Origin: a virus
Reading direction: 5' to 3' (one strand)
IMG/VR virus record: IMGVR_UViG_3300014325_000006
Coordinates: 1-48,032 of that record
DNA length: 48,032 bases
Part shown: piece after piece, positions 16,001 to 48,032 of the stretch
How positions within the stretch are numbered: the first letter of the stretch is position 1
Layout: each line of letters starts with the position of its first letter
Program-made: the position numbers and the translations under genes
The notes under the pieces: model-generated
The model's input: the letters and a program-made list of their open reading frames with translations, nothing else
Told to the model about the DNA's origin: nothing
The model's database searches: none

Positions 16001-18493
16001 ATGCCGGGGACGGTCTTCACCATGACCGACGAGGCGCGGGCTGCGGCGATGAAGCCGAAGTCCATGTATCAGCGCCAGCCCGACTGGGACGCGCTCCCGA
16101 AGGGAGCGACCGAGTTCATCGAGGGCGGGCACACCCGCGTCCACGCCTTCAAGGACGCCGACATCTCGACCTGGATTCACGAACTCGGACACATCGCGCT
16201 GCACGACCTCCCCGACGACGCCCGCGCTGTCCTGGAGGGCCACTACGCAGGAGGCAGGGCCGTCTCCGAGTGGAGGGAGATGGAGCATGAGAGCTTCGCT
16301 CGGGACTTTGAGGACTACGTTCGCAAGGGCACCGCTCCCACGAACCAGCTCGCCTCCATCTTCGGGAAGCTCTCGGCCTGGGTGAGGGAGGTCTGGAAGG
16401 CCGAGAAGCGCAAGGGCACGCAGCTCGACCCGCAGGTCGAGGAGGTCTTCTCGCGCATGTTCGGCCACCCCGACCCGGAGCTGACGAAGACCTGGGGCTA
16501 CTTCCCGCACCGCGACTTCACCGAGCTGGCGCAGCAGGAGTACCGGGGCGGCGTCCGCCCACCGGCAGCGGGGCAGACCATCGGCATCCCCCAGCTCGCG
16601 GGTCAGACGCTCCAGCGCAAGCCGAACGAGATGCTCCTGTATCAGGCCGGTCGCCTCTCGCCCGACCCGAAGCAGCTCGTTGACGTGTTCATGCGGCGGC
16701 TCCGCTTCCAGGAGACGCTGAACGCCCGCGACGAGCTGTGGTCGATGGGTCGCCCGCTGAGCGAGCAGCCCCCGAAGGGAGCGTGGCTCATCCGCAATCC
16801 CGACGAGGCGGCGCAGCGCATACGCCCGGAAGTGCAGGCGGCGGTGCGCGGACGGCCGACCACGGCTCCGTCCCGCACGGAAGACCTGGAGGCGCTGGAG
16901 GGTCAGCTCACCGGGGACGCCGAGCAGGTCAGGCAGGAGATGATCGCCAAGCCGGGGGAGCATCCCGAGTGGGCGTCCGACGAGGAGAACGTGCGCTGGG
17001 TCCCGGAGGAGTACGTCACCACCCGCTTCGGCGAGGTCTTTGAGCAGCGCCCACGCGGCGGGATGTGGTCGGCGCTCGGGCTGATGAACTCGCTCCAGCG
17101 AACGACGGGCATCTACGGTCGCCCGATCTCCTACGTCGGCGGCAACGTCCCCTTCAACGTGATGGCGCTCATGGCCTCGATGCCGGTGTCCACGCTGCGG
17201 AACGCCGGAAAGACGTTCCGGCTCATGCGCGGTAGCGACGAGCAGCGGGCGCTGTACCGGGCCATCGCCTCGGAGACGGGCGAGACGAGGGCGTCGGGTG
17301 GGCTGCCGGACTTCTACGTCCAGGCGCAGAACCGTTTGCAGGGAGCAGAGCAGAAGGCGACGCAGGCGCAGAGGGCTGCCGCCGACGTTCTCTCCAAGGC
17401 CGCCGACTCACCCTGGCGCGTCACCGCCTTCCTGAACAACGCCCGCAAGCGGGGCTTCCGCACCGACGATCAGCTCCGCGACCTGATCCGCGAGGGCGGG
17501 CCTGAGCTGTCGGACATCCGGCAGTTGACCCGCGAGCAGCTCCTCGACTTCGACACCCTGAACCCGACGCAGCGTCGGCTTGCCTCGCAGTTCCTCTACC
17601 TGTGGCCGTTCATGTACGCCTCGGTCAAGTGGCCCATGATGTTCGCCCGCGAGTATCCGGGGCGGGCGGCGCTCGCAGCGGAGTTCATGCAGGACAAGGG
17701 GCAGAACGAGCCAGCGTCGATTGCGAACCTGTGGAAGTCGCAGGGCATCGACCTCTCCACCTTCAACCCGGTCGGGCCTGCCGCCGACATCGCCGAGCAG
17801 CTCCAGCTCACGCTGCAAGACCCCGGCCAGATGGACTTGACCGTCCTCCAGGACAGACTGTCGCCGACCCTGGCCTCCCTGGTGGAGAGCATGAGCGGCG
17901 GCAAGAAGAACGCCGTCGTGAACTACCTGCGTCAGTCGATCCCCGGCGCGGCCGAGCTGATCTCTGCCGACCCGCAGTTCCGGGGCGGCAAGCAGTACGC
18001 TGACCAGTCGCGGGCCGCGTACCTCCTCCAGCGCCACACGCGCTTCTTCCCTCGCGGGCTGAACCCGGAGGTCATCAAGGAGCGCATCGACAAGTTCCGC
18101 TCCGACCACACGACCGCCGACACGCATGAGCTGGAGCGCAACGCCGACTGGCAGAAGATCGAGCGGTACTACAAGACGGTCGGCGGGGATGGCGATGCCA
18201 TCCGCCGCTCGTACAAGGCGTGGTGGGACTACCAGGAGGCCGTCGCCGAGAAGAAGGACGCGACCGGCCAGCGCAAGCTGACCACCCTCCAGAGCATCGA
18301 AGTCCTGACCGGCGTGGCCGAGGAGAACTACCCCGAGCTGGAGGGCCAGCTCTGGGATGTCGAGCGGATGCGCGACTCCGACTACCAGCGCAAGAACGCG
18401 AAGGCGATGGAGGAGTACGCGCAGACGCTCAAGGACTACATCAACGACGCCCGCTCCCGCCTCTTCAGCGACTACAGCTATGCGACCCCGTAA
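13082..18493 (+). CDS. Giant polyvalent internal virion protein with HELGH motif
   Basis: 1803 residues, the largest gene. It begins with a Lys/Arg-rich, nuclear-signal-like stretch (residues 20-45), then a long helical region. Residues 690-760 hold the EIQSDW motif (E743-W748), preceded by a beta region ending in LLIE. This block is a hallmark of large polyvalent proteins injected by phages and plasmids. An HELGH zinc-protease motif lies at 1033-1037 (WIHELGHIALHDL). The C-terminal third is helical. It is probably ejected with DNA to act in the host cell. It overlaps the lysin start by 14 bases. Confidence 0.8.
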   Translation: MPFGIDLPDIKELPGIDSFTTSDEEKRKRRKRKRPTVPKTAKKKKDDGGDFWSATKHFLTPGAAFEDVTSPILKKVHAPKIIRSIPKNVAQIGEGFIPATLAIGKAGWHDRNLSLLDTLDRKHLQDYMRLAQWTLADEKGDKKKRPKTDSELAGLVAEMIRGWGRGIERAIPDPTNSQDVREAARTWRDDPVFAAMDVLPFGAAVTRPISIGSRVGKLGVRGAIKESYYPGAAARAGLEGGIAPRTHAVQIGDVTREVHGRPWSRNPLMREMQRGYDNLFELSPKLQTKRVARVEERLANEEKRRITLASQELSHPVAHLVYGRLGRALGAFGFKSGMTPLERQKATALAYAFQMPRHMDPHEALGAVQDDLRSVLESGKMELPRGKRVKTADLTREQKQALTTQIADLEAVRRDLRSGDLSEDEFRTALEAMKHTADQTQEMGLDIMRRRYNLTDEEEAALREAWANRADMLPRRLAGRGHLGLDLADSPERAARIAEWMDRHGPEGAQALTALYDGVARGVRGNDPASFYAERVGKATGETPEEYAQRVGEAGLYQRVTPEHGMQSLIEGAAEAPAQTSAFFSPLQKWVDEKMPRKMQAGQLQAVLRREIPNEEFYNLGLDNFFNQYGRNEVLLQAEFQNFLANPLNAYNLREVHFVNTHEADAVGLAARYDIEHQGNYVSRDPAMGEYHEVVMELPNPYLARDKTYRGTGRLHWDRDNVAVHARFHVFDEDGKTKLLIEEIQSDWANDFRKEAARGLKYRDLTEEEAQHFDDLRGAIEEAEAVVLPYQRAVNEAAERARNAAPEERAAADDEFYRLSDERDRAREDLHRLQDEYDALNDDFRLGNVPPPPLGRGSSARSSYINTMSRWLHRYAAENGVDEIIVVSREAQLARNGKSIGSEEWSSLGGGSAEAVTEYLARKGHAGRAYISYDTDIPEALAREMGVDGRRVEDAYDGHYRVPHDFNEQAAGRMPGTVFTMTDEARAAAMKPKSMYQRQPDWDALPKGATEFIEGGHTRVHAFKDADISTWIHELGHIALHDLPDDARAVLEGHYAGGRAVSEWREMEHESFARDFEDYVRKGTAPTNQLASIFGKLSAWVREVWKAEKRKGTQLDPQVEEVFSRMFGHPDPELTKTWGYFPHRDFTELAQQEYRGGVRPPAAGQTIGIPQLAGQTLQRKPNEMLLYQAGRLSPDPKQLVDVFMRRLRFQETLNARDELWSMGRPLSEQPPKGAWLIRNPDEAAQRIRPEVQAAVRGRPTTAPSRTEDLEALEGQLTGDAEQVRQEMIAKPGEHPEWASDEENVRWVPEEYVTTRFGEVFEQRPRGGMWSALGLMNSLQRTTGIYGRPISYVGGNVPFNVMALMASMPVSTLRNAGKTFRLMRGSDEQRALYRAIASETGETRASGGLPDFYVQAQNRLQGAEQKATQAQRAAADVLSKAADSPWRVTAFLNNARKRGFRTDDQLRDLIREGGPELSDIRQLTREQLLDFDTLNPTQRRLASQFLYLWPFMYASVKWPMMFAREYPGRAALAAEFMQDKGQNEPASIANLWKSQGIDLSTFNPVGPAADIAEQLQLTLQDPGQMDLTVLQDRLSPTLASLVESMSGGKKNAVVNYLRQSIPGAAELISADPQFRGGKQYADQSRAAYLLQRHTRFFPRGLNPEVIKERIDKFRSDHTTADTHELERNADWQKIERYYKTVGGDGDAIRRSYKAWWDYQEAVAEKKDATGQRKLTTLQSIEVLTGVAEENYPELEGQLWDVERMRDSDYQRKNAKAMEEYAQTLKDYINDARSRLFSDYSYATP

Positions 18494-19505
18494 GCCCCTG
18501 GCTCCCGCCATCGACGCCTACCTCTCCGGGAGGGGGTCGCCGATGGCTGGGCAGGGCATGTCCTTCCTGCGGGCCGGTCGCAAGTACGGCGTCGATCCCC
18601 GCCTGCTCGTCGGCATCGCCACCATCGAGTCGAGCGCGGGACAGCATGAGAAGATCAGGTACAACCCGTTCAACTGGGGCGTGCATCGGGGCCAGAGCTA
18701 CGGCTCGTACGAGGAAGCGATCATGGACGTGGCCCGAGGGCTGCGCCGGGGCTACCTCGACCAGGGGTTGACGACCCCTCAGCAGATAGTGTCGAAGTAC
18801 GCACCCAGTTCTGATGGCAACAACGAGTCAAACTGGGCGAAGGTCGTCGGGCAGGTCATGGGGCAGCTCGGCGGCAACGTGCCTGCGGGGGCGACCCCAT
18901 CCCAGGGGCAGAGAGGCATCGCCGCAGCTCTCAGCCCCACTCCCCCGTCTCCGCAGGCTCCTTCCTACAAGACGGAGTTCGACCCCGCCCTCTTCTCTCG
19001 TAATCTGCGAAACCAGTTCATCGCCGGGGGCGGAAGGATAGACCTCATGGGCCTGGGACAGACGCGGCAGGAGAGCTACGTCCCGGTGCCTATCCCGCAG
19101 CCGCCCGCTCCGCAGCAGGGGCAGCCGATGGCGAAGACCGGCCACGGCCCTGTCGCCCCGCAGCAGCCCGTCCTCACGGGCAAGGGGATCAGCCTCCCGA
19201 TCACCTACAAGTCCACGCACGTCACGGACGGACTGACCGACCAGGGGTTCACCAGGGCCATCGACATCATGGGAGCGCCGGGGACTCCGGTTCGCGCTCC
19301 GATGGAGGGCACCGTTCTCTACTTCCACCCGAACGGAGCGCAGGGCGGCGGCTCGATGGAGGTCCGCTTCGCGGACGGGCGGGTCGGCTGGATCGGGCAC
19401 ATCGCCAACGGGCTACCCGCTGGCGCGAAGGTCAGGGCGGGAACCGAACTCGCGGTGATCTCGGCAGATCACCCACGCCCGCACGTCCACTGGGACCTGA
19501 GATAG
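18480..19505 (+). CDS. Two-domain virion lysin: glucosaminidase-like plus M23 peptidase-like
   Basis: 341 residues from ATG 18480. Residues 25-135 resemble beta-N-acetylglucosaminidases (PRLLVGIATIESSAGQ with E50 as likely acid, NPFNWGV, KYAPSSDGNNESNW). A Pro/Gln-rich linker spans about 140-235. Residues 240-341 resemble the M23/LytM fold (D262, H307, H335-V-H337). The usual first zinc-ligand His before the GxD strand is Thr258 here (TRAID), so peptidase activity is uncertain. It probably opens the peptidoglycan during DNA entry, being encoded with virion genes and not with the endolysin. Confidence 0.8.
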   Translation: MRPRKPLAPAIDAYLSGRGSPMAGQGMSFLRAGRKYGVDPRLLVGIATIESSAGQHEKIRYNPFNWGVHRGQSYGSYEEAIMDVARGLRRGYLDQGLTTPQQIVSKYAPSSDGNNESNWAKVVGQVMGQLGGNVPAGATPSQGQRGIAAALSPTPPSPQAPSYKTEFDPALFSRNLRNQFIAGGGRIDLMGLGQTRQESYVPVPIPQPPAPQQGQPMAKTGHGPVAPQQPVLTGKGISLPITYKSTHVTDGLTDQGFTRAIDIMGAPGTPVRAPMEGTVLYFHPNGAQGGGSMEVRFADGRVGWIGHIANGLPAGAKVRAGTELAVISADHPRPHVHWDLR

Positions 19506-19509
19506 ACGA

Positions 19510-19529
19510 AGGGCACCCGAAGGTGCCCT
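19510..19529. terminator. Bidirectional terminator hairpin between convergent units
   Basis: Stem AGGGCACC / GGTGCCCT is perfect over 8 pairs with loop CGAA. It lies five bases after the rightward lysin stop and 25 bases before the end of the leftward secreted-protein gene. No U-run is present on either side. Confidence 0.8.
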
Positions 19530-19554
19530 CCATCCTCTCTGGTGGGAGATCGCT

Positions 19555-20802
19555 CTATGGATCAACGACGATGGTGCAAGTAATCGTCTGCGGCTCCAGG
19601 TTGGAGGCCGTGACGCTCGGGTCGCCAGCGTTCGCGGCGTCGAGTGCGTCGTTGTCGCAGTCAACCGATGTCATCGTCCCGCCCGTGACCTGCGAGTGAG
19701 CAGAGATCGTCACGTTGGTCAGCGGCGTGTTGTGGAAGCTGACGTTCTCGCCTCCGTAGGACGCATCGGAGCAGGACGCCGAGTTGTCCGGCGTGACCTC
19801 CTTCACCGAGTCGTCAGACGAGTAGCCCGAGGGCACCGTCTCCGTCACCGTGACCTCCTCGCCGAGGGCGAGGCCGTCGAAGCAGGCGACGCCGTTCGCG
19901 TCCGTCTGCTTGGTGACGCCGTTGATCGTGAAGCTCACGCCCGACTGAGCAAGGTCGCCCGAGCTGGTCGCTGCGTGCTTGTACGTCTTCGTGATCTTGA
20001 CCGCGCCGCAGTTGTTGTTCGACAGCGAGATCGGTCGGATGAAGTCCTTGAGCTGCGACGTGAAGCTGTCGGAGCTGCGGGACTTGAGCATCGCAGAGCC
20101 GAACGCGAGGCATGTGTCGCCCCCGGTCACGGCGCTGAGATCGAAGGACGCCTCGCCGAACGTGCGCGGGGCGAGCGAGCCAGATGAGATCAGGCCGTCA
20201 GACTGCGCGGCCGGGATCGACACCTGATTGATCGCGCCGATGGCCTCGGTTGAACCGAGAGCTGTCGGATCGCTCCACCCGGTTGCCGTCCAGGTGCGAC
20301 GGGAGAGATGGGCCTGAGCGCCACCCTGATCCACGTCGAACTGGAGGAGAACGTCGCCGACTGTGCGGACGATGTTCGGGCCTGAAGCGCACTTCGTGGT
20401 CGAGCGGTTGAACTCAAAGTCCATGTTGGTCGTGCCGGACGGATCGTTCACACGCGCCCAGTAGACATGCAGCCAGCCGGGGCCGTTGACTTCGGACTCC
20501 GAGTAGCCACCGAACTCCAGCAGATCGCTCTTGTTGTTCGGGATCGAACCTGTCGTCTCGCCCGGACACACCGTGTCTTCCTTGGTGCCGCCCTGGTACG
20601 AGTCGTCGTTTGTCCCGGTCGGAGCGTCAGCTCGCCGGTTCTGAGAGACGTTCGCCCAGTCGAGGGCACCCGCCCCACCGTTGACGATGAGATTGCCGTC
20701 AATCTCAAACGCGCTGCCAGGAAGCGATGCTCCTGAAGCGCCTACAACGAGTACGACGGCAAACGCTGTGGCAGCGCAAGCTGCCGCGAGCCATCTATAC
20801 AT
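19555..20802 (-). CDS. Secreted protein with SpaA/CNA-B-like domain (possible moron)
   Basis: 415 residues from ATG 20802, chosen because GAAGGG sits 6 bases upstream. An in-frame GTG at 20832 would precede the ribosome site. Residues 1-25 form a clear signal peptide (WLAAACAATAFAVVLVVGAS then AxA). Residues 26-265 are a beta-rich domain with paired Cys. Residues 268-360 are a prealbumin-like (SpaA/CNA-B) domain: VKITKTYKH, SGVSFTINGV, NGVACFDGLALGEEVTVTET, VPSGY. There is no LPxTG or C-terminal anchor. Such domains are common in actinobacterial secreted proteins, so it may alter the host surface. Confidence 0.78.
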   Translation of the reverse strand: MYRWLAAACAATAFAVVLVVGASGASLPGSAFEIDGNLIVNGGAGALDWANVSQNRRADAPTGTNDDSYQGGTKEDTVCPGETTGSIPNNKSDLLEFGGYSESEVNGPGWLHVYWARVNDPSGTTNMDFEFNRSTTKCASGPNIVRTVGDVLLQFDVDQGGAQAHLSRRTWTATGWSDPTALGSTEAIGAINQVSIPAAQSDGLISSGSLAPRTFGEASFDLSAVTGGDTCLAFGSAMLKSRSSDSFTSQLKDFIRPISLSNNNCGAVKITKTYKHAATSSGDLAQSGVSFTINGVTKQTDANGVACFDGLALGEEVTVTETVPSGYSSDDSVKEVTPDNSASCSDASYGGENVSFHNTPLTNVTISAHSQVTGGTMTSVDCDNDALDAANAGDPSVTASNLEPQTITCTIVVDP

Positions 20803-20807
20803 CCCCA

Positions 20808-20820
20808 TCCCTTCTGTCGA
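20808..20820 (-). promoter_or_regulatory. Start-associated sequence ahead of the secreted protein
   Basis: Read leftward: TCGACAGAAGGGA, a variant of the genome-wide consensus CCCGACAGGAAGGAG. It supplies the Shine-Dalgarno of the 20802 start. No start-codon hairpin is seen here. Confidence 0.65.
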
Positions 20821-20861
20821 TGACCGGCGCACTCTATGGCGCGGCCGGTTCCTTTACAACC

Positions 20862-21638
20862 CTACCTGGCTGAGAGCGGAGGCGCGGGCACGTCGTCGCC
20901 CAGTCCCGCGCCTGCCGTGACGCCTAGGTCGCCCCGCTCCCCGGAGGGAGCGATGTCGGACGGGCCGGTTCCGCTCTCTTCCCAGTCGGCGATGAACGCC
21001 GTCCGGTTCTGCATGACCCACTCCAGGGCGGGGATGAGGACGTGGTAGCGAAGCAGGCGAGGGGACTCGGGGTCGAGGCCCATGAGGACGGCCAAGTCCT
21101 CGACGTAGGTGTCGAGGATGTCGGTGCCCGCCTCCCCATCGTCGGGGACGAGCAGGCTCCACGTCTTCGCCTTGCGCTTGGGCAGGCCGTCCACCGTCTG
21201 CCGCTTCTCGCGTGGGTGCGCTCGCCCGCAAGTCGGGCACAGTCCCTCCTCGCGGCGCACGCGCTTGACCTCTGGTTCAGGGTCAACTAGAGCCTGACCC
21301 CGAAGGTCGCCGAGGTTCTTCCACTCCCCCTGCCAGTCCAGCTCCCACCAGTCGAAGAGGCCCACGCCCGCGTCGTAGGTGATCTTCGCCTGGTGCCCCC
21401 CAACGGGAGAGGTCACTTCGTTGTGATGACGCACGCACAGGCCAACGGAGTTTGGGATGACGCGGCCCGCAATCTCGATCCACTCGTACGGCTGGCCGCG
21501 CAAGTACGACTTCGGCCAGAGATGGTGCCGCTGCTGGGTCAGCGAGAGGCAGCCGGGGACGACGCACCATTGGCTCAGCTCGACCGGCTTACCCTCGACG
21601 CCCCGGATGTCGGGGATGACCAGCGGAGCGAGGGTCAC
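20862..21638 (-). CDS. HNH-like endonuclease with additional CxxC
   Basis: 258 residues from GTG 21638, overlapping the TGA of the upstream gene (GTGA). Residues 24-75 carry the HNH layout: C25...C30, then HH at 38-39 (QQRHHLWPKSYL), N63 and HH-N at 71-73 (VGLCVRHHNE). A C134-x2-C137 pair follows. The C-terminal 120 residues have no recognised domain. It is next to the recombination genes, so it could act in recombination or be a free-standing homing-type nuclease. Confidence 0.75.
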   Translation of the reverse strand: MTLAPLVIPDIRGVEGKPVELSQWCVVPGCLSLTQQRHHLWPKSYLRGQPYEWIEIAGRVIPNSVGLCVRHHNEVTSPVGGHQAKITYDAGVGLFDWWELDWQGEWKNLGDLRGQALVDPEPEVKRVRREEGLCPTCGRAHPREKRQTVDGLPKRKAKTWSLLVPDDGEAGTDILDTYVEDLAVLMGLDPESPRLLRYHVLIPALEWVMQNRTAFIADWEESGTGPSDIAPSGERGDLGVTAGAGLGDDVPAPPLSAR

Positions 21639-21853
21639 GTCGGCCTCGGCGGCACGAACACGAAGTAGAGAATCCAGCCCACCGCCATGAACGTCCACAC
21701 GGTGCCGAGCGCGAACATGAACCAGCTCTCCCAGGCCAGAGCGCCCCAGTAGCAGAGCAGCGCGAGCAGCAGGTAGATGCTCACCACGATGGCGTACCCG
21801 ATGTAGTCGTCAAGCCCACGCTGGACACCCCTGTCTCCATCCGCAGAAGTCAC
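21635..21853 (-). CDS. Small membrane protein with two helices
   Basis: 72 residues from GTG 21853, overlapping the end of the nuclease gene by 44 bases. Two hydrophobic helices span about residues 18-41 (YAIVVSIYLLLALLCYWGAL) and 44-68 (FMFALGTVWTFMAVGWILYF). The short N-terminus is charged. The shape is compatible with a holin, but its place among recombination genes does not favour lysis. Function unknown. Confidence 0.65.
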   Translation of the reverse strand: MTSADGDRGVQRGLDDYIGYAIVVSIYLLLALLCYWGALAWESWFMFALGTVWTFMAVGWILYFVFVPPRPT

Positions 21854-31151: not shown

Positions 31152-31212
31152 GTGGTGCTGACTGCACCGTAGAGGGCACCTTCGGTGCCCTCCGTGCTGC
31201 GTTCAGCTACTC
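31152..31212 (-). repeat. Intergenic cassette, copy B
   Basis: Same flanks as 29984-30046 but with a different central hairpin. It joins the stop of the amidotransferase gene to the start-associated sequence of the 31129 gene. Confidence 0.7.
31172..31192. terminator. Hairpin terminator in cassette B
   Basis: Nine-pair perfect stem GAGGGCACC / GGTGCCCTC with loop TTC. It is related in sequence to the 19510 terminator. Confidence 0.65.
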
Positions 31213-32247
31213 GGCATCCTCATCGAGGATGGCCGCGTTCACGGCGTCCCAGGACTCGTACACGATGTCAGCCTGTCGGCTGATCTTCGGCACGCCGTCC
31301 ATCTCCCACAGAACGTCGCAGTCCTGGCAGAGCTGGTACGTCGTCTTGTCCTCGTCGTCCCAGCGGTACTCCATCTCCTTCCAGGAGATGACGGTGCCGC
31401 AAGCGTCACAGTCGAGGGTGTCCTCCTCGCGCTCCCAGCTCAGAGAGCTGGTCGTGGAGGCGGGGACCTGCGGCGTCACGTCCTTCCAGGGAAGGACGAG
31501 GTTCGTGCCCTGCCAGGTCTTCACCTTCGGTGGGCTGTACGGCTTGAACGACTTGCGAGTCAGCTTCCCGTCCTTGAAGTGCAGGACGGTGCCCTGCTTG
31601 ACCTGCTCGATCTTCTGCCTCTTCGGCAGACGACCGATGTGGGCCTCGTACGCCTCCTTGACGGTGGCAAGCGTGCTGCCCCAGAGGACGTACCGCTTCG
31701 TCGTCAAGACGAAGAGAGGCGACTGGTGGCCTCGGGCCAGGACCAGCTCGTCGGGACGATTCTCGTCCACGACGGCGATGGCCGCTGCCCCTTCGATCTC
31801 ACTCATCACCTTCGGTGCCGCTCCGAGCTTCCCGAGGCTCGCAAAGCGAGCCGGGATGGCTTCGGAGTCCACCTGGCCGTACCGCACCCGACCGGCAAGC
31901 TCAAAGAGCTTGTGGTCGTTGCTGACATGGCCGTTGTGGATGGCGTAGAACGACCCCCTCTTGAGGGGGTGATTGTTCTCCACGAAGGCAGGCAACCCTT
32001 GGGTTGCCCAGCGAGTGTGGGCCAAGATCGTGCGAGTCCCCTTCGGGACTCGGCGGCGGTACTTCACGAAGTCCCGCACGTCACAGGCGGCCTTCTGCCA
32101 CTCCGTGACCCCCTCGTCGCCAAGAGCGACGAAGCCTGTCGCGTCCCCACCACGATGCTCGATCTCATCGAGCATGGTGTCGAGGATCGCATCGAGATCG
32201 GCCTTCGCCTTCGGGTCACGAAGGTATACGCCAGCGATTCCACACAT
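31207..32247 (-). CDS. Class II glutamine amidotransferase
   Basis: 346 residues from ATG 32247. C2 follows the initiator Met (MCGIAGVY) and is the expected N-terminal nucleophile. H77-T-R-W-A-T, N-N-H-P at 91-94, N105-G-H and D127-S-E-A complete the GATase class II (Ntn-hydrolase) signature. These enzymes release ammonia from glutamine for a partner synthetase. The C-terminal 80 residues add a zinc ribbon (CDACG, CQDCD). No synthetase domain is fused. The adjacent amidoligase gene (33614) is the likely functional partner. Confidence 0.88.
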   Translation of the reverse strand: MCGIAGVYLRDPKAKADLDAILDTMLDEIEHRGGDATGFVALGDEGVTEWQKAACDVRDFVKYRRRVPKGTRTILAHTRWATQGLPAFVENNHPLKRGSFYAIHNGHVSNDHKLFELAGRVRYGQVDSEAIPARFASLGKLGAAPKVMSEIEGAAAIAVVDENRPDELVLARGHQSPLFVLTTKRYVLWGSTLATVKEAYEAHIGRLPKRQKIEQVKQGTVLHFKDGKLTRKSFKPYSPPKVKTWQGTNLVLPWKDVTPQVPASTTSSLSWEREEDTLDCDACGTVISWKEMEYRWDDEDKTTYQLCQDCDVLWEMDGVPKISRQADIVYESWDAVNAAILDEDAE

Positions 32248-32269
32248 AGTGTGGCTCCTTCCTGTCGGG
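32240..32269 (-). promoter_or_regulatory. Start-associated sequence plus start-codon hairpin, 32247 gene
   Basis: Read leftward: CCCGACAGGAAGGAG (exact consensus), then stem CCACAC / GTGTGG with loop TAT. The ATG begins in the loop, as in the 31129 gene. Confidence 0.78.
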
Positions 32270-32307
32270 TATTCGGCTCGTAGAGCCGGGAGGTATTGCC
32301 CTCCGTA

Positions 32308-32330
32308 AAGCCCCGGCAAAGCCGGGGCTT
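32308..32330. terminator. Hairpin terminator between amidoligase and amidotransferase
   Basis: Ten-pair perfect stem AAGCCCCGGC / GCCGGGGCTT with loop AAA. A second hairpin (GGGGCT / AGCCCC, 32341-32355) covers the amidoligase stop codon. Confidence 0.7.
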
Positions 32331-32345
32331 ATTGCAGGGCGGGGC

Positions 32346-33614
32346 TTACAGCCCCGGTGAGCGTCCTGCCGCTTCCAGGATCGTGTCCTTCTCACCTTCG
32401 GTGAGAGGCAGGATGTCGAGCAGATGGTTCAGCACTTCCCGCTTCTCCTCACGGGTCGAAGACCCGTATTCGTTCACGGGGAGCGTCCCCAGCTCATGCC
32501 TCTTGGCATGAGCCGTCATGGCGTGAGCGAACAGCAGCCATGCGTGGATCGTGCGAGGCAGCGTCGAGGAGTTGAAGACCCTCCATTCGACGGTTGCACC
32601 GTCGAAGGCTCCGCAATCGCAAGCCTCCCAGTCGCCCATCGTCGCTGCTCCACAGGAGCAGCGGGAGACGGCCGAGTAGAGCCGCTGGAAGTTCAGACCG
32701 AAGTATCGGTCTGAGCGCATGACTCGCCACACCTTTGCTGCTCCAGCAGCACCCTCCACCTTGGGCACGGGCTTGCAGTAGCCCGAGTAGGAGTCGGCAG
32801 GCTGCCGGTGCCGCTGCCATCCGGCAGCGGAGAACGAGTAGAGCATGTCCTCGGCATAGCTCCACAGCTCGTAAAGAGCTGCCATGTCCCGAGCGCCGAA
32901 GCCAGTCCCGTCCTCGGCGTTAGCCGAGATGTGGACGTGGATGCCTGCGGCGTACGAGGTCGTCACTGGACGACCTGGCGTGTCCCGGAGCTGACGAATC
33001 TTCGTCAGAGCCAGCGACAGAGCCGTCGAGTGACCGTCCTGCGAGAGGTTGAAGCGGTCGAAGACCACTTCACCACCGGCATCCGGCAACGAGCCGTCCT
33101 CCTCGACGTGTGCCCTGCCACGGCGGGAACCGCCGTAGTGGTACTGCACCTTCCCTGGCTCATCGGCTACGCCGATGTCGTAGAGAAGCCGAGCGACCAT
33201 CGTTCCGCCGCTCGCCAGCTCTTGCTCCAAGGAGCAGAGCCGCGCAGGGCGGCCTTCGATGGCAGGAACGCTGACCCTGTAAGGGTCATCGACCGGGGCG
33301 AGGTACGGCATCTCACCGTGGAACTCCTCTTCGGAGTTACAGCAGTCGTATGCCTCCTCGTCGGAGCCATGCTCCGACCCACAGTCGGCGCAGTAGTAGC
33401 GATGCTCCGCATCGCAGTCCTCGCAGAGCGAGCCGCCGTAGTTCTCGTTGTAATACAACGAGTCCGACGAGTCCTGCCGATTGCCACAGCAATCGCAGTA
33501 GACGGCGCAGCACTCCTCAGCATCGCTGAGGAACTCATGCCCGCTGCCACACTCGGCACACGGGTACAGCTCCTCTTCAGCATCTTCGATGCTGGATGTG
33601 AGAACGTCAGGCAC
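32346..33614 (-). CDS. Amidoligase (Amidoligase_2-like) with N-terminal zinc-ribbon array
   Basis: 422 residues from GTG 33614. Residues 17-95 hold eight or more CxxC-type pairs (CAECG, CCAVYCDCCG, CEDCD, CADCG, CC), a zinc-ribbon array. The catalytic region carries E130-Q-E132 (SLEQELASGG), E171-E-D-G-S-L-P...GGE182 and H226-V-H228 (AGIHVHISA), the signature of glutamine-synthetase-fold amidoligases. These join an amine to a carboxylate using ATP. The neighbouring glutamine amidotransferase could supply ammonia. A role in modifying cell wall or a peptide is inference. The coding DNA is the densest hairpin region of the genome. Confidence 0.82.
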   Translation of the reverse strand: MPDVLTSSIEDAEEELYPCAECGSGHEFLSDAEECCAVYCDCCGNRQDSSDSLYYNENYGGSLCEDCDAEHRYYCADCGSEHGSDEEAYDCCNSEEEFHGEMPYLAPVDDPYRVSVPAIEGRPARLCSLEQELASGGTMVARLLYDIGVADEPGKVQYHYGGSRRGRAHVEEDGSLPDAGGEVVFDRFNLSQDGHSTALSLALTKIRQLRDTPGRPVTTSYAAGIHVHISANAEDGTGFGARDMAALYELWSYAEDMLYSFSAAGWQRHRQPADSYSGYCKPVPKVEGAAGAAKVWRVMRSDRYFGLNFQRLYSAVSRCSCGAATMGDWEACDCGAFDGATVEWRVFNSSTLPRTIHAWLLFAHAMTAHAKRHELGTLPVNEYGSSTREEKREVLNHLLDILPLTEGEKDTILEAAGRSPGL

Positions 33615-38425: not shown

Positions 38426-38947
38426 CGCTACACCGACGCGAGCTACGACATCCCGGTCGGCAAGACCGGCGAGCCGTACTCGCATCAGTTCGCAGGAGAG
38501 GGGGGCTGCGGCCCCGCGCTTCCCTACCAGTGGCGCATCCTGCAAGGCGAGATGCCTCCGGGCCTCTCCCTGAACGGCGCGACCGGCCTCGTCTCGGGTG
38601 TGCCCACCCAGGTTGGATCGTGGGCGGTCTGGATCGAGCTGTCCGACCAGGACCCGCCGAGCGCCGACTGGTGCCGACCGGCGAAGTCTGAGCGCGAGTT
38701 CGTGTTCCCGGTCGAGAAGGGCACCGCCCCACCCGAACCCCCGCCCGATGGAGGCGACGACATGGCGACGAAGATCGGATACCAGGACGGGATCGAGTCG
38801 TTCTTCGACTGGTATCGCAAGCAGCCCACCGTCCCGCAGCGCGGCCCGAACTACGACCCGAACGACATCAACACCTGGCCGTGGCCGGACAAGCTGGAGC
38901 GCACGCTCCAGATTCTCAAGGACGACCACGACGCAGCGATCAAGTGA
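38423..38947 (+). CDS. Ig-like (putative Ig, He_PIG type) domain protein
   Basis: 174 residues from GTG. Residues 10-80 match the putative Ig domain: GEPYSHQFAGEGGCGPALPY, QWRILQGEMPPGLSLNGATG and LVSGVPTQVGSW. The C-terminal 65 residues are helical and Trp-rich. Such domains decorate phage particles or bind cell surfaces. It precedes the endolysin and overlaps it (GTGA). Confidence 0.72.
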   Translation: MRYTDASYDIPVGKTGEPYSHQFAGEGGCGPALPYQWRILQGEMPPGLSLNGATGLVSGVPTQVGSWAVWIELSDQDPPSADWCRPAKSEREFVFPVEKGTAPPEPPPDGGDDMATKIGYQDGIESFFDWYRKQPTVPQRGPNYDPNDINTWPWPDKLERTLQILKDDHDAAIK

Positions 38948-39744
38948 CCGTCTCCGAGCAGAACGCGCCCTTCACCGAGGCGTACGGCCTTCCCTCGACC
39001 GACTTCAAGTCGAAGGGGAACACCGCGCTCGCGGTCAAGAGGGCGCTCGCGCACCTTGGCTTCTTGGAGTGGGAGCCGGACAAGTGGGACAAACAGTGGA
39101 ACGAGAAGCTCAACACCGCGAGCGCCGAGTGGAAGCGCAAGCGTGGCCTGATCCCCCAGGGGTCGGACGATGGCTCCTGGGGGAAGAAGGCGCACGACAC
39201 GATGCGCGGGACGAACTTCGGCAAGGAGAAGAAGCCCGCCTTCGACGGTGAGTCGCAGCGCCTCCTCCAGGAGGAGAAGAAGGCGTCCCAACCGGCGACC
39301 TCCAAGGAGGATGCCGTCCGCAAGAAGATCACCGAGTTCTGCGAGCAGGCCATCGCGGAGCCGGACTGGTACTACTCGCAGAACCGTGCCGTCGATGTGA
39401 GCGTGAACCCGAACGGGCCGACGACCTCGGACTGCTCAGGTTCGACCATCCAGGCCTTCCACTACGCGAAGCGCGAGACGGGGCTGAACGTGCAGGACCC
39501 CGCGCAGCAGGGCTGGTCGGGGTACGGGAACACGAACTACTACGAGGACGACTGGCCCACGGTCGGCGCTCCCTACAAGGTGGGCGACCTCGCGCACTAC
39601 GACGGGCATGTGTGCTGCTGCTACCAGCCCGGTGACGCGAACACGTCCAAGTGGTTCTCGTTCGGGAGCGAACCTCCGTCGTCGCGCTCGCTGCACTACC
39701 GCACCGACTTCCGCAAGGTCGTGCGCCCGAGGCTGCTGGCATGA
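38944..39744 (+). CDS. Endolysin, NlpC/P60- or CHAP-like
   Basis: 266 residues from GTG. Residues 28-95 look like a peptidoglycan-binding-type helical domain (NTALAVKRALAHLGFLEWEP). Residues 125-266 are the catalytic domain: C164 in TTSDCSGSTIQAF, then H222 in VGDLAHYDGHVCCCYQPG. The Cys-His pair fits NlpC/P60 peptidases, which cut wall peptides. The hydrophobic genes that follow could include the holin. Confidence 0.8.
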   Translation: MTVSEQNAPFTEAYGLPSTDFKSKGNTALAVKRALAHLGFLEWEPDKWDKQWNEKLNTASAEWKRKRGLIPQGSDDGSWGKKAHDTMRGTNFGKEKKPAFDGESQRLLQEEKKASQPATSKEDAVRKKITEFCEQAIAEPDWYYSQNRAVDVSVNPNGPTTSDCSGSTIQAFHYAKRETGLNVQDPAQQGWSGYGNTNYYEDDWPTVGAPYKVGDLAHYDGHVCCCYQPGDANTSKWFSFGSEPPSSRSLHYRTDFRKVVRPRLLA

Positions 39745-39881
39745 ACGCGCTCGACCGGGCGATCTACCGCTTCCTCATCTGGGCGATCCCGCGCCGCTGG
39801 CACCAGTCGTTCCCCCACTGGCTGAAGGTGCTGCTCAACCGCTGGATGAAGCATCGGGGCGACCCCGGCGACCTCCGGTAG
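39741..39881 (+). CDS. 46-residue amphipathic peptide
   Basis: ATG overlaps the endolysin TGA (ATGA). MNALDRAIYRFLIWAIPRRW, then HQSFPHWLKVLLNRWMKHRG is Trp-rich, basic and amphipathic. It could attach to membranes and help lysis. Confidence 0.6.
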   Translation: MNALDRAIYRFLIWAIPRRWHQSFPHWLKVLLNRWMKHRGDPGDLR

Positions 39882-39899
39882 GCCAGCGACGATGACGGG

Positions 39900-40121
39900 A
39901 TGCTCGCCGTCAGCACCGTCGAACTCTCGCTGGGCGGCCTCACGCTCGTCCTCGCCCTCATCATCGCCGCCGTCTTCCTCGCCCGTCACGACCGGATTAC
40001 GCGGGTGAAGTTCGGCATCTTCCTGGAGCGAGAGCGGTATCGAGACGACGAGCCGCCTCCATCCGAGGGCGATACGAAGATCATGGGACCCTGGCCGGGG
40101 CAGAAGAAGGAGGAGGAGTAA
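39900..40121 (+). CDS. Single-helix membrane protein, holin-like
   Basis: 73 residues. A hydrophobic helix spans residues 8-28 (ELSLGGLTLVLALIIAAVFL), followed by a basic and acidic tail. One helix plus charged C-terminus next to an endolysin fits a class III holin or a spanin-like helper. A GACGAT box lies six bases upstream. Confidence 0.62.
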   Translation: MLAVSTVELSLGGLTLVLALIIAAVFLARHDRITRVKFGIFLERERYRDDEPPPSEGDTKIMGPWPGQKKEEE

Positions 40122-40207
40122 TGCTCACGTTCAACGACATCTGCCTAGCGATCATCGCGGTGGCGCTCGTCCTGATCTTCCTGTTCGGCGTCAACGTCGC
40201 TGGCTGA
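40121..40207 (+). CDS. 28-residue membrane peptide
   Basis: ATG overlaps the previous TAA (TAATG), and AGGAGGAG supplies the ribosome site. MLTFNDICLAIIAVALVLIF is followed by LFGVNVAG. One helix only. Lysis helper is possible. Confidence 0.58.
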   Translation: MLTFNDICLAIIAVALVLIFLFGVNVAG

Positions 40208-40338
40208 TGCCCGGAAAGCAGGTCAAGAACTGGAAGGTGTACGAGGCGCTGCGCCGCGAGGGCCACTCCAAGGAGTCGGCGGCTCGCATCGCCAACGCTC
40301 AGGCGGCGAAGAAGAAGCGTCCGAAGAAGAAGAAGTAG
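40207..40338 (+). CDS. 43-residue Lys-rich protein (DUF7218-like)
   Basis: ATG overlaps the previous TGA. MPGKQVKNWKVYEALRREGH, then SKESAARIANAQAAKKKRP and a Lys-rich tail. The YEALRREGHSKESAARIAN core is a common small actinobacterial and phage family, probably nucleic-acid binding. Confidence 0.7.
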   Translation: MPGKQVKNWKVYEALRREGHSKESAARIANAQAAKKKRPKKKK

Positions 40339-40340
40339 CC

Positions 40341-40430
40341 CTAGGACCAGAAGCCGCGTGAGAGGTATCCCAGGAGGTACGCGAGTCCGATGATCGGAAG
40401 CGCGTACCTCCACGGGACACGGTGCTGCAT
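40341..40430 (-). CDS. 29-residue membrane peptide, leftward
   Basis: ATG overlaps the stop of the 41003 gene (TAGATG). MQHRVPWRYALPIIGLAYLL, then GYLSRGFWS has one helix. It converges with the 40207 gene with two bases between stops. Very short, so tentative. Confidence 0.4.
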   Translation of the reverse strand: MQHRVPWRYALPIIGLAYLLGYLSRGFWS

Positions 40431-41003
40431 CTACTTGACGGTGATCGTCCCCGAATCGACCAGGGAACCGTCGAGTGCGCGGACCTCGACGTAGCTCTCT
40501 CCCTTGAACCCCTTGGGGTAGGAGAGGAGCGCGAGGCCGTCGTTCGGCTGGACGGCCGTGTTCGACCAGTCGCCGTCCTGCCCCTGCGCGAACACCTGAA
40601 CGGCGATCTCCTTGCCGCCCATCGGCTCGACATGCTCCGGGAGGTTCCCGAACAGGAAGTCCTTGAGCTTCTGAGCCGCCTCGCCCGGAAGCGAGTTGTC
40701 GATGTACGGCGGCAGGTAGATCGGATGGGACGGCCCCGGCTGCTCGCCAGGAAGCCCCTGATCCGGGCGGGGCTGGTCGCCGGGGAGTTCGTGATCGGGC
40801 CTCGGCTGATCGCCCGGAAGTTCGTGGTCTGGGCGAGGCTGATCCGTAGGTGGAGCGTTGTCCACATACGGAGGCAGGAAGATCGGATGCGTCGGGAAGC
40901 CGTCCGGCTGGTCCGGTGGCTTCTCCTCCGGTGGCCCACTCTCGACCATCGGGTCCCAACTGATCTCGACCCCCTCGCGCTGGCTATTGACCTCTACGGC
41001 CAT
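40431..41003 (-). CDS. Pro-rich repeat protein with C-terminal beta domain
   Basis: 190 residues from ATG 41003. Two copies of HPI(F/Y)LPPY(V/I)DN flank three tandem 11-residue repeats of the DQPRPDHELPG type. The C-terminal 75 residues form a beta domain (ALLSYPKGFKGESYVEV). HPIxLPP repeats occur in many actinophage small proteins. The extended repeats suggest a spacer on the particle or cell surface. Isolated leftward gene with its own start-associated sequence. Confidence 0.68.
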   Translation of the reverse strand: MAVEVNSQREGVEISWDPMVESGPPEEKPPDQPDGFPTHPIFLPPYVDNAPPTDQPRPDHELPGDQPRPDHELPGDQPRPDQGLPGEQPGPSHPIYLPPYIDNSLPGEAAQKLKDFLFGNLPEHVEPMGGKEIAVQVFAQGQDGDWSNTAVQPNDGLALLSYPKGFKGESYVEVRALDGSLVDSGTITVK

Positions 41004-41101: not shown

Positions 41102-41815
41102 ATGTCGAAGAGGGACAGTTGCCGCCACTGTGGGGCAACCGAAGACCTCGTATGCGGGGACAGCGGGTGCGTGTGCAGGAACGGGATCGAGTGCCGCCGC
41201 CGCGAGACGCAGGACGCGGAGCGCGGGTACGGCAGGGCGATCCTGGTCGCGGTCGTCGCCTGCGTGATCTTCGCCGCAGGGCTAGGAGTCGCGCTCGCGG
41301 CTAAGCCACCTGAGCCACCCGGCAAGAACCCATGCGAACACGGCAACGCGCAGAAGCCATGCCGTGAAGACCCACAGCCGAACCACGGGGCTGACTGCAA
41401 GCCGCACGGCAAGGGTGGGGAGAACGAGGATCACTGTAAGCAGACGACCGAGACGACTACGACGACTCAGACGACCACCACGGGAACCACTACGACGACG
41501 GGGACGACCACCACGACGACGACATCTCCTCCGACGACAACGACAACGACTCAGCCTCCGACGACAACTCAGACGACGACGACATCACCGCCGCCGCCGC
41601 CTCCTCCAACGACGACAACGACCACGACAACAACTCAGCCACCTTCCACGACTGAGACGACTCAGACCACTCCATCCGTACCACCGCCCACGCAGAAGCC
41701 ACCGACCAAGCCTAAGCCCAAGCCGAAGCCGACGCCGCGCTCGCACAAGCCACCGCCTGTCTGTCCGCCCGGCGGTGTGACGACCGAGCGGTGCGGGGTA
41801 CAAGGGAGCGGATGA
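41102..41815 (+). CDS. Membrane-anchored Thr-rich (mucin-like) protein
   Basis: 237 residues from ATG. Residues 7-31 hold a zinc-knuckle-like Cys set (CRHCG, CGDSGCVCRNGIEC). A membrane helix (AILVAVVACVIFAAGLGVAL) follows at about 45-65. Residues 110-190 are almost pure Thr with Pro and Gln. A Lys/Pro-rich stretch and a last CPPGG...RCG segment close the chain. The Thr-rich stalk would be exposed and is a potential glycosylation target. It may alter the cell surface or anchor a receptor block. Confidence 0.68.
   Translation: MSKRDSCRHCGATEDLVCGDSGCVCRNGIECRRRETQDAERGYGRAILVAVVACVIFAAGLGVALAAKPPEPPGKNPCEHGNAQKPCREDPQPNHGADCKPHGKGGENEDHCKQTTETTTTTQTTTTGTTTTTGTTTTTTTSPPTTTTTTQPPTTTQTTTTSPPPPPPPTTTTTTTTTQPPSTTETTQTTPSVPPPTQKPPTKPKPKPKPTPRSHKPPPVCPPGGVTTERCGVQGSG
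41450..41680 (+). repeat. ACN-rich low-complexity tract
   Basis: Degenerate ACG/ACA/ACC triplets encode the Thr-rich stalk. Slippage could vary its length between isolates. Confidence 0.75.
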
Positions 41816-46090: not shown

Positions 46091-48029
46091 CGAGCGCGGA
46101 TCGACTGCGAAGGAACGGACTCGGGACCCGTACGGATCACGCGACGGCGCGTTCGTAGACGAGCTGTCGATGGTCACGGCGGCCATCGAGTCTGTCGAGC
46201 CGTTCCACAAGAACTTCACCGAGCAGATCGAGCGCCGTTACAAGGCGTACCGGGGGATCGCCGAGCAGCGCAGCGCGACCACGCAGAACTGGCGCTCGTC
46301 CCTGACGACCCCGTACATCCTCCAGGTGATCGAGGGCATGATCGCCACCCTGCTCGACGCGAAGCCGAAGTGGGAGGTTCAGCCGAAGCCCCTCCCCGGC
46401 GAGGCGATGGATCAGCTCCTCGGTCGCCAGTCCTCATCGAAGATTGCCTCGGCAGCTCTCCAGTGGGCGATGGACGAGGACGGCTTCGCCGTCAAGCAGC
46501 GCCCCTTCATGCAGCAAGACCTGATCGCGGGCATGACGGTCGGGAAGGTCGTGTGGGCGTACGAGACACGCGAGATGACGCGGCTCGTCCCCATCGAGGT
46601 CGAAGTCTCCGACGACTTCGGCGTGCTGCGTGACCGCTACACCGACACCGAGGAGGAGACGCAGCACGTCTGCCTGCGCGACGGGCCGAGCCTGATCGTG
46701 CGCGACGTGCGCGACTTCTTCTGGCCGCAGTCGGCGAAGGGGATGGACGACGCCGCCTGGGTGATCGACCGAAGCTGGGAGACGTGGGACGCGCTCAAGG
46801 CGAAGGAGGACGCGGGCCTGTTCAAGAACGTGGACGAGCTGAAGGACGCCCAGAACGAGTCCGGCCACTACGACCTCTCCGGGCGCGAGCAGCTCCTCTG
46901 GGGCCATGAGCGAAACAAGGACCTCATCGAGGTCCTGGAGTATTGGACGGATGAGCGGGTCGTGACCGTGGGCGCTCGCCGCGTCGTTCTCGCCTCGCGG
47001 GAGAACCCGCTACGGATCAAGCGCAAGCCGTTCGTCGTCTGCTCGGCGATGCCGGACGCCTTCCAGGTCCCCGGCATCTCGGTGGTCGAGTCGCTCGCGC
47101 AGATTCAGGAGTACCTGTGGACGGTGCAGAACCAGCGCATCGACGCCCTGCGTCTGCTCACGAACGTCATCACTCTCATCCGCTCCGACGTGGACGACCC
47201 CGACTCGTTTGAGTTCTTCCCCGGCGCTCAGTGGGTGGTCGAAGACCCCGGCCAGGTGTCGCAGCTTGAGATCGACCCGACAGCGGCGTCGATCACGCTT
47301 GAGGCCGAGTCGATGATGAAGGGCGACCTCCAGAACATCATGGGCGGCCTCGCGTTCGCGGGCGGCACCGAGAGCGGGCTGTCGAACGCGCAGAACACGG
47401 CCACGGGCATGAGCATCGTGACCTCCATCGCGCAGCGGATCATCCAGGCCCGCAAGCAGCACTACATGTGGTCGTACTCGCGGATCGGCGAGATGTTCCT
47501 CGGGATGATGGGGCAGATGCTCCGCGAGGAGCGGATCATCCCGCAGATCGGCGCGGGCGGGAAGCAACAGCTCCTCGCCGTCCACCCGCTCCAGCTCCAG
47601 GGCGAGTTCGACGTGAACATCAACGTCATGGACGAGTCCACCGTCCGCCAGGAGAAGCTCTCCGAGGCGATGGCGCTCGTCAACCTCGCCGGACAGCTCG
47701 CCGCCATCCCCGGCCTCAACATCAACATGCGCCCGTTCATGGAGCGTGTGCTAGAGGCCCAGGGCATCCAGAACCCGGACTCGTTCTTCCTGCCCGCCCA
47801 GGGCGGCCCACCCGGACAGCCGCAGCAGCCGGGGACTCCCGCCTCTCCCCAGACGATGCAGGAGAACATGCAGCCGGGGCCGATGCCGATTGGCTCACAG
47901 GGGCAGACGAACCCGGCGCTCGCCGCCTCGATGGGCGGACAGGCGGGAGGGTTGGCCGTCTCCCCTGACCAGTTCGCCCAGCACCAGATTCAGGCCGTTC
48001 AGCAGATGGGCCTCGGCGCGAACGGCTGA
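46083..48029 (+). CDS. Portal protein
   Basis: 648 residues from GTG. Layout follows podovirus-type portals: helical N-terminus (VEPFHKNFTEQIERRYKAYR), a core with PYILQVIEGMIATLLDAKPK, QRIDALRLLTNVITLIRSDV and the long helix MSIVTSIAQRIIQARKQHYM, then a Gln/Pro-rich C-terminus. It forms the ring through which DNA enters and leaves. The gene crosses the end of the window, and its last 39 codons also appear at 1-120. Confidence 0.9.
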   Translation: MADERGSTAKERTRDPYGSRDGAFVDELSMVTAAIESVEPFHKNFTEQIERRYKAYRGIAEQRSATTQNWRSSLTTPYILQVIEGMIATLLDAKPKWEVQPKPLPGEAMDQLLGRQSSSKIASAALQWAMDEDGFAVKQRPFMQQDLIAGMTVGKVVWAYETREMTRLVPIEVEVSDDFGVLRDRYTDTEEETQHVCLRDGPSLIVRDVRDFFWPQSAKGMDDAAWVIDRSWETWDALKAKEDAGLFKNVDELKDAQNESGHYDLSGREQLLWGHERNKDLIEVLEYWTDERVVTVGARRVVLASRENPLRIKRKPFVVCSAMPDAFQVPGISVVESLAQIQEYLWTVQNQRIDALRLLTNVITLIRSDVDDPDSFEFFPGAQWVVEDPGQVSQLEIDPTAASITLEAESMMKGDLQNIMGGLAFAGGTESGLSNAQNTATGMSIVTSIAQRIIQARKQHYMWSYSRIGEMFLGMMGQMLREERIIPQIGAGGKQQLLAVHPLQLQGEFDVNINVMDESTVRQEKLSEAMALVNLAGQLAAIPGLNINMRPFMERVLEAQGIQNPDSFFLPAQGGPPGQPQQPGTPASPQTMQENMQPGPMPIGSQGQTNPALAASMGGQAGGLAVSPDQFAQHQIQAVQQMGLGANG

Positions 48030-48032
48030 TGC
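47910..48032. repeat. 123-base terminal direct repeat (copy 2)
   Basis: Identical to 1-123. The final ATG at 48029-48031 is the start of the 120-452 gene. Confidence 0.95.

What the first reader, a model, noticed from the sequence alone, without database searches (positions are those of the whole stretch)
19555..20802. Secreted SpaA-like protein encoded by a phage
Signal peptide, cysteine-rich beta domain and a prealbumin-like domain are typical of actinobacterial surface proteins, and it is not next to virion genes. Phages rarely encode secreted host-like proteins unless they modify the infected cell. It lies at the end of the leftward unit, beside the terminator, a usual moron position.
Basis: partly seen in the sequence, partly recalled or inferred. 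Interest (0 to 1): 0.62.

Follow-up and report, generated by a model that had tools for sequence, protein, structure and literature searches.

The report
Phage-carried secreted host adhesin-like protein
A complete soil phage genome carries a gene, apparently acquired from an actinobacterium, for an exported sugar-binding-like protein with a SpaA-type self-crosslinking domain; distantly related and unrelated phages carry the same kind of gene at other sites, which points to an optional extra that probably alters the surface of the infected cell.

Summary
Window 19555-20802 (-) encodes a 415-aa exported protein: Sec signal peptide, a 240-aa conserved beta-sandwich, one SpaA/CnaB domain and a conserved 55-aa C-terminal module, with eight cysteines and no LPXTG or membrane anchor. 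The window is a complete podovirus-like phage (123-base terminal repeat, no integrase found). Full-length homologues are actinobacterial chromosomal proteins (35 loci, 36-52% identity; 16 of 396 sampled genomes). Close copies (74-76%) occur in two distant relatives of this phage at a different site, where the gene stands alone before a terminator. Closer relatives with all core genes lack it, and a tailed phage with unrelated structural proteins carries a separately acquired copy. That is moron behaviour. New here: the N-terminal domain models as a CBM9/DOMON-like carbohydrate-binding fold, and the SpaA domain keeps the complete Lys-Glu-Asn isopeptide triad; a published survey found no intramolecular isopeptide bond in viral proteins. 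Function (coating surface polysaccharide, perhaps excluding superinfecting phage) is inferred, not shown.

The parts
19555..20802 (-). 415-aa secreted SpaA-domain protein gene (called SPAA here)
   Evidence: ORF plus full-length homologues
20728..20802 (-). Sec signal peptide, residues 1-25, likely cleavage near ASGA|SLPG; no lipobox
   Evidence: sequence; hydropathy; same arrangement in homologues
20008..20727 (-). N-terminal conserved domain, residues 26-265, CBM9/DOMON-like beta-sandwich, no Pfam match
   Evidence: alignment A2; VIA-align Z 9.4 to 4jpq, 9.0 to 2ivf_C, 8.3 to CBM9 1i82
19717..20007 (-). SpaA/CnaB (prealbumin-like) domain, residues 266-362, with Lys272, Glu321, Asn358 isopeptide triad
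   Evidence: PF17802; CnaB structures Z about 10; triad conservation 29/29, 20/20, 18/18
19558..19716 (-). C-terminal module, residues 363-415, two conserved Cys, ends CTIVVDP at the extreme C terminus
   Evidence: alignment A1
19505..19534 (-). 13-bp hairpin with UUCG loop between the convergent units; likely terminator, no U-tract
   Evidence: strand folding z -3.25
20803..20861 (-). 59-bp upstream gap with TTGTAA-17-TAGAGT (20831-20859), a weak promoter candidate
   Evidence: sequence; 8 of 12 to consensus; scan found no site at 9 of 12
20862..21698 (-). neighbour: conserved phage gene, weak HNH-nuclease match, upstream in the leftward unit
18357..19505 (+). neighbour: glucosaminidase plus M23 peptidase lysin-like protein, last gene of the rightward unit (true start perhaps 18543)

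Best explanation
The gene is an accessory cargo gene (moron) that phages took from soil actinobacteria. During infection the host Sec system exports its product. The N-terminal CBM9/DOMON-like domain probably binds a polysaccharide of the host wall, capsule or matrix. The SpaA/CnaB domain, predicted to lock itself with a Lys272-Asn358 isopeptide bond (Glu321 catalytic) and disulfides, acts as a rigid stalk, and the C-terminal module extends it. With no covalent anchor, it would coat the infected cell or its matrix by binding glycan. The most likely benefit is masking surface receptors against a second phage, or changing adhesion of infected cells. Supported by sequence comparison: family, export signal, acquisition from bacteria, mobility. 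Predicted: folds and isopeptide triad. Inferred only: glycan binding, coating, benefit.
For: Full-length chromosomal homologues in Kribbella, Agromyces and others; 16 of 396 Actinomycetota genomes have the N-domain. Podophage clade sister to two actinobacterial proteins L096/L098 (support 100/99), and the fourth phage copy falls elsewhere. Present in G001 and L003/L082 at 74-76%, no match in G002-G007 although the HNH-exonuclease block is syntenic in G002-G005. SPAA (74%) is the most similar full-length protein found between the window and G001 (MCP 63, TerL 59, portal 49), yet G005, closer by MCP 72, TerL 74, portal 73, lacks it. Different site in G001: 151 bp from a divergent gene, with a strong hairpin 48 nt after the stop. 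Unrelated tailed phage G015, with a different MCP family, carries a homologue with signal peptide. Fold: CBM9-like and CnaB-like. Triad invariant.
Against: No function is known to me for any homologue. No integrase was found, so the phage is probably lytic and lysogenic conversion, the usual benefit of morons, may not apply. N-domain model confidence is modest (mean pLDDT 67.9 alone, 78.5 in the full protein), and Z 8-10 with 4-8% identity shows fold, not sugar binding. No consensus promoter was found in the window copy.
Confidence: 0.45

Rival explanations
1. A secreted factor whose use is outside the cell after or around lysis: it sticks to soil or matrix polysaccharide or neighbouring cells and helps virion spread, or acts as a decoy that keeps new virions from binding debris.
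For: No cell anchor, acidic soluble mature protein (pI 4.3), CBM9-like N-domain, probably lytic phage.
Against: A signal peptide is not needed for a protein released by lysis. The bacterial homologues also carry signal peptides, so the family is built for export from living cells.
Confidence: 0.25
2. A virion-associated decoration or receptor-binding protein.
For: CnaB/Ig-like domains occur in phage structural proteins (BFVD hits named baseplate and cell-wall-anchor). In G015 the gene follows tail-fibre-like genes.
Against: Signal peptide in all complete phage copies, eight Cys, leftward unit with nuclease genes in the window and G001, absent from relatives with the same virion genes, and full-length homologues are bacterial chromosomal proteins.
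Confidence: 0.08
3. A neutral hitchhiking gene with no present role in the phage.
For: Patchy presence.
Against: Open reading frame kept in three podophage records (one cut by the contig end), codon usage matched to the phage (distance 0.116, within the range of core genes), triad and family-wide Cys positions kept, and separate capture by another phage.
Confidence: 0.12

Closest known systems
Actinobacterial chromosomal SpaA-domain secreted proteins (e.g. Kribbella L004, Agromyces L006/L014)
   Same: Same architecture and order: signal peptide, N-domain, SpaA, C-terminal module ending CTIVIDP; no LPXTG
   Different: The phage copy has one SpaA domain, while bacterial paralogues have one to several; phage clade adds a Cys pair (79, 138); function unknown in both
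SpaA/CnaB isopeptide domains of sortase-assembled pilins (GBS52 3phs, LGG SpaA 5f44, CnaB2 8bdw)
   Same: Fold (Z 9.5-10.7) and E-box; Lys, Glu, Asn triad positions
   Different: No sortase signal, no sortase gene recognised among the window genes searched; not a pilin
CBM9 carbohydrate-binding module and DOMON-like domains (1i82, 2ivf_C, 4jpq)
   Same: Beta-sandwich fold of the N-domain (Z 8.3-10.1)
   Different: Sequence identity 4-8%; no Pfam CBM hit; ligand residues not compared
Phage surface lipoprotein morons for superinfection exclusion (Ltp of phage TP-J34, PMC3952083)
   Same: Small exported accessory phage protein expected to act at the infected cell's surface
   Different: Ltp is a lipoprotein of a temperate phage; this one is not a lipoprotein and its phage lacks a recognised integrase
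PblA/PblB phage adhesins of streptococci (PblB: PMC4508584)
   Same: Phage-encoded protein linked to adhesion
   Different: These are described as phage tail proteins (own knowledge); this one is not in the virion gene unit

Membership tests
Phage moron (accessory cargo gene) | Extra gene present between genes that are adjacent in relatives | tested here: met
   HNH and lysin-type genes adjacent without it in G005, G002, G004
Phage moron (accessory cargo gene) | Own promoter and terminator | tested here: inconclusive
   Terminator hairpin in window and G001; stand-alone divergent arrangement in G001; no consensus promoter in window
Phage moron (accessory cargo gene) | Foreign origin | tested here: met
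   Chromosomal actinobacterial homologues and tree; but codon usage is ameliorated
SpaA/CnaB isopeptide domain (PF17802) | Sequence and fold match | tested here: met
   E 1.1e-4, 0.4 bits below gathering score for the single sequence; family profile hits collagen adhesins 3.9e-11; Z about 10
SpaA/CnaB isopeptide domain (PF17802) | Lys, Glu, Asn/Asp triad | tested here: met
   K272, E321, N358 invariant in all rows with data; all three in or at ends of predicted strands
SpaA/CnaB isopeptide domain (PF17802) | Formed isopeptide bond | not testable with these tools
   Needs mass spectrometry or crystal structure
LPXTG-anchored surface protein / sortase pilin | C-terminal sorting signal | tested here: not met
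   No LPXTG in the C-terminal 60 residues of any member; no NCBIfam hit for the window protein
Carbohydrate-binding module CBM9 | CBM9 fold | tested here: inconclusive
   Z 8.3 over 155 residues, rmsd 3.9, above the unrelated Ig-like rows at 6.5; model pLDDT modest
Carbohydrate-binding module CBM9 | Sugar binding | not testable with these tools
   Needs glycan binding assay
Virion structural protein | Homologous to known phage structural families | tested here: not met
   No significant PHROG hit (best E 0.07), no hit in 50,697 phage records

The most novel reading that the evidence does not exclude
A phage-encoded, exported glycan-binding protein carries the first viral intramolecular isopeptide bond, and phages of different lineages have captured this host adhesin-like family more than once to remodel the surface of the cells they infect.
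Probability: 0.35. Interest if true: 0.7.

Novelty: new variant of a known kind. Interest (0 to 1): 0.5.

Why it matters
Morons that act at the cell surface are known mainly from temperate phages (own knowledge). Here an apparently lytic soil phage lineage carries, and seems to have exchanged, a host-derived secreted protein with a carbohydrate-binding-like domain. The intact isopeptide triad bears on the open question of whether intramolecular isopeptide bonds occur in viral proteins; a 2025 survey of the BFVD reported none (PMC12617251). Both points can be tested directly on one recombinant protein.

Tried and rejected
Virion protein: rejected on signal peptide, gene position, absence in relatives with the same virion genes, and no PHROG or phage-record match. 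LPXTG surface anchor: none. Lipoprotein: no lipobox. Prophage origin of the bacterial homologues: the neighbours read in Kribbella and Agromyces look like chromosomal genes by eye (names from sequence reading, no family search run). Recent transfer by base composition: codon usage and GC (63.6 against 65.9%) fit the phage, so it gives no signal. Known defence gene: no PADLOC hit. RNA families: none in window. Plasmid carriers: only one, a 1-Mb Arthrobacter replicon. Single-sequence PDB search of the SpaA domain alone gave only weak hits. Foldseek on the whole multi-domain model gave mostly immunoglobulin noise besides UafA. Host prediction: capsid homologues in 2 of 396 actinobacterial genomes, not conclusive. 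Literature searches found no description of this family in phages.

Full report
What the window is. The window is one whole IMG/VR virus record of 48,032 bases with an exact 123-base direct terminal repeat, so it is very likely a complete genome. Portal, terminase, major head protein, tail-fibre and collar proteins and a 1,803-aa protein fit a podovirus-like phage. Phage isolates share only weak similarity with its head protein (22 records, about 31% identity or less in those listed), but IMG/VR holds a group of related contigs, the longest 44-49 kb. No tyrosine or serine recombinase was found, so a lytic life is likely but not proven.

The gene. The leftward gene at 19555-20802 encodes 415 aa. 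Residues 1-25 are a Sec signal peptide, with the only strong hydrophobic peak of the protein. The mature protein is acidic (pI 4.3, 40 kDa). It has no LPXTG, no C-terminal membrane segment and no lipobox. Pfam finds SpaA (PF17802) at 287-338, slightly below the gathering score; a family profile finds solved collagen adhesins at 3.9e-11.

Homologues. Bacterial genomes give 35 loci, nearly all Actinomycetota: Kribbella (49-52% over most of the length), Agromyces (often two adjacent paralogues), Hamadaea, Arthrobacter, Pseudarthrobacter, Rubrobacter and others. They share the signal peptide and the conserved N-domain, followed by one to several SpaA domains, and in the closer members a C-terminal module that ends the protein in CTIVIDP. 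The N-domain occurs in 16 of 396 sampled Actinomycetota genomes, so it is an accessory family. The neighbours read around the Kribbella and Agromyces copies look like ordinary chromosomal genes.

Phage copies. INPHARED has none. IMG/VR has three further copies: G001 (L002; 48,873 bases, 74%), fragment L003/L082 (76%) and G015 (L083, 36,601 bases, 42-48%). G001 is a distant relative of the window phage; L082 carries the same exonuclease and HNH genes. G015 is a different phage, with PHROG 777 head protein, major tail protein and tape measure, and no window core gene matches it.

Mobility. In G002-G005 the exonuclease-HNH-lysin order is kept and the gene is absent; G005 shows only a short gap with a hairpin at the site. 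In the window the gene lies after HNH, at the end of the leftward unit. In G001 it lies upstream of that block, 151 bp from a divergent gene and with a strong hairpin 48 nt after its stop. Window and G001 share SPAA at 74%, while head protein, terminase and portal share 63, 59 and 49%. G005 shares those three at 72-74% and lacks SPAA. Presence therefore does not follow phage descent, which points to exchange or separate capture. The tree joins the three podophage copies (100/100) and makes them sister (100/99) to two actinobacterial proteins, with the G015 copy elsewhere; the four phage rows need at least two changes. That two captures from bacteria occurred is the simplest reading; direction rests on the much wider bacterial distribution.

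Structure. AlphaFold models (pLDDT 78.5; N-domain 67.9) show a beta-sandwich N-domain. Its best matches are a putative carbohydrate-binding protein (4jpq, Z 9.4-10.1), ethylbenzene dehydrogenase gamma (2ivf_C, 9.0-9.1) and the CBM9 of Thermotoga xylanase 10A (1i82, 8.3), standing above unrelated Ig-like rows at about 6.5. This suggests, but does not show, carbohydrate binding. The SpaA domain matches CnaB pilin domains at Z about 10. Lys272, Glu321 and Asn358 fit the CnaB isopeptide triad and are invariant in all rows with data. Eight Cys are present: 231, 265, 307, 344, 382 and 409 are family-wide, and 79 and 138 are shared mainly within the phage clade and its nearest bacterial relatives. 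A 2025 survey reports no intramolecular isopeptide bond among BFVD models, with the caveat that some SpaA subfamilies score low in its detector (PMC12617251). The known crosslink of HK97-type capsids is between subunits (own knowledge), a different case.

Mechanism. Shown by sequence comparison: a host-type protein with an export signal, mobile among phages. Predicted: carbohydrate-binding-like N-domain, self-locked stalk. Inferred: it coats the wall, capsule or matrix of the infected cell and masks receptors or alters adhesion. Ltp-type lipoproteins (PMC3952083) are a functional precedent, not relatives.

Limits.

Noticed in passing
41102-41815 +: 237-aa protein with one hydrophobic segment, a Cys-rich motif (KNPCEHGNAQKPCREDPQPNHGADCKPHG..GGENEDHC) and a long Thr/Pro mucin-like stalk. 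In G001 its homologue (73% over 59 aa) lies divergently next to the SPAA gene; found in 1 of 396 Actinomycetota genomes at E 1.9e-6.
   Followed up: partly
31207-33614 -: Adjacent glutamine amidotransferase and amidoligase-like genes, conserved in G005 at 68 and 61%; possibly another envelope- or peptide-modifying module.
   Followed up: no
38942-40895: Stretches 73-87% identical in DNA to G001 (40204-40317 at 87%), more than most core genes; no Rfam match.
   Followed up: no
1-123 and 47910-48032: Exact 123-base direct terminal repeat, so the record is very likely a complete genome.
   Followed up: yes
L006, L008-L014, L022: Many Agromyces genomes carry two adjacent paralogues of this family, one of them longer with more sequence between the N-domain and the C-terminal module.
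   Followed up: no
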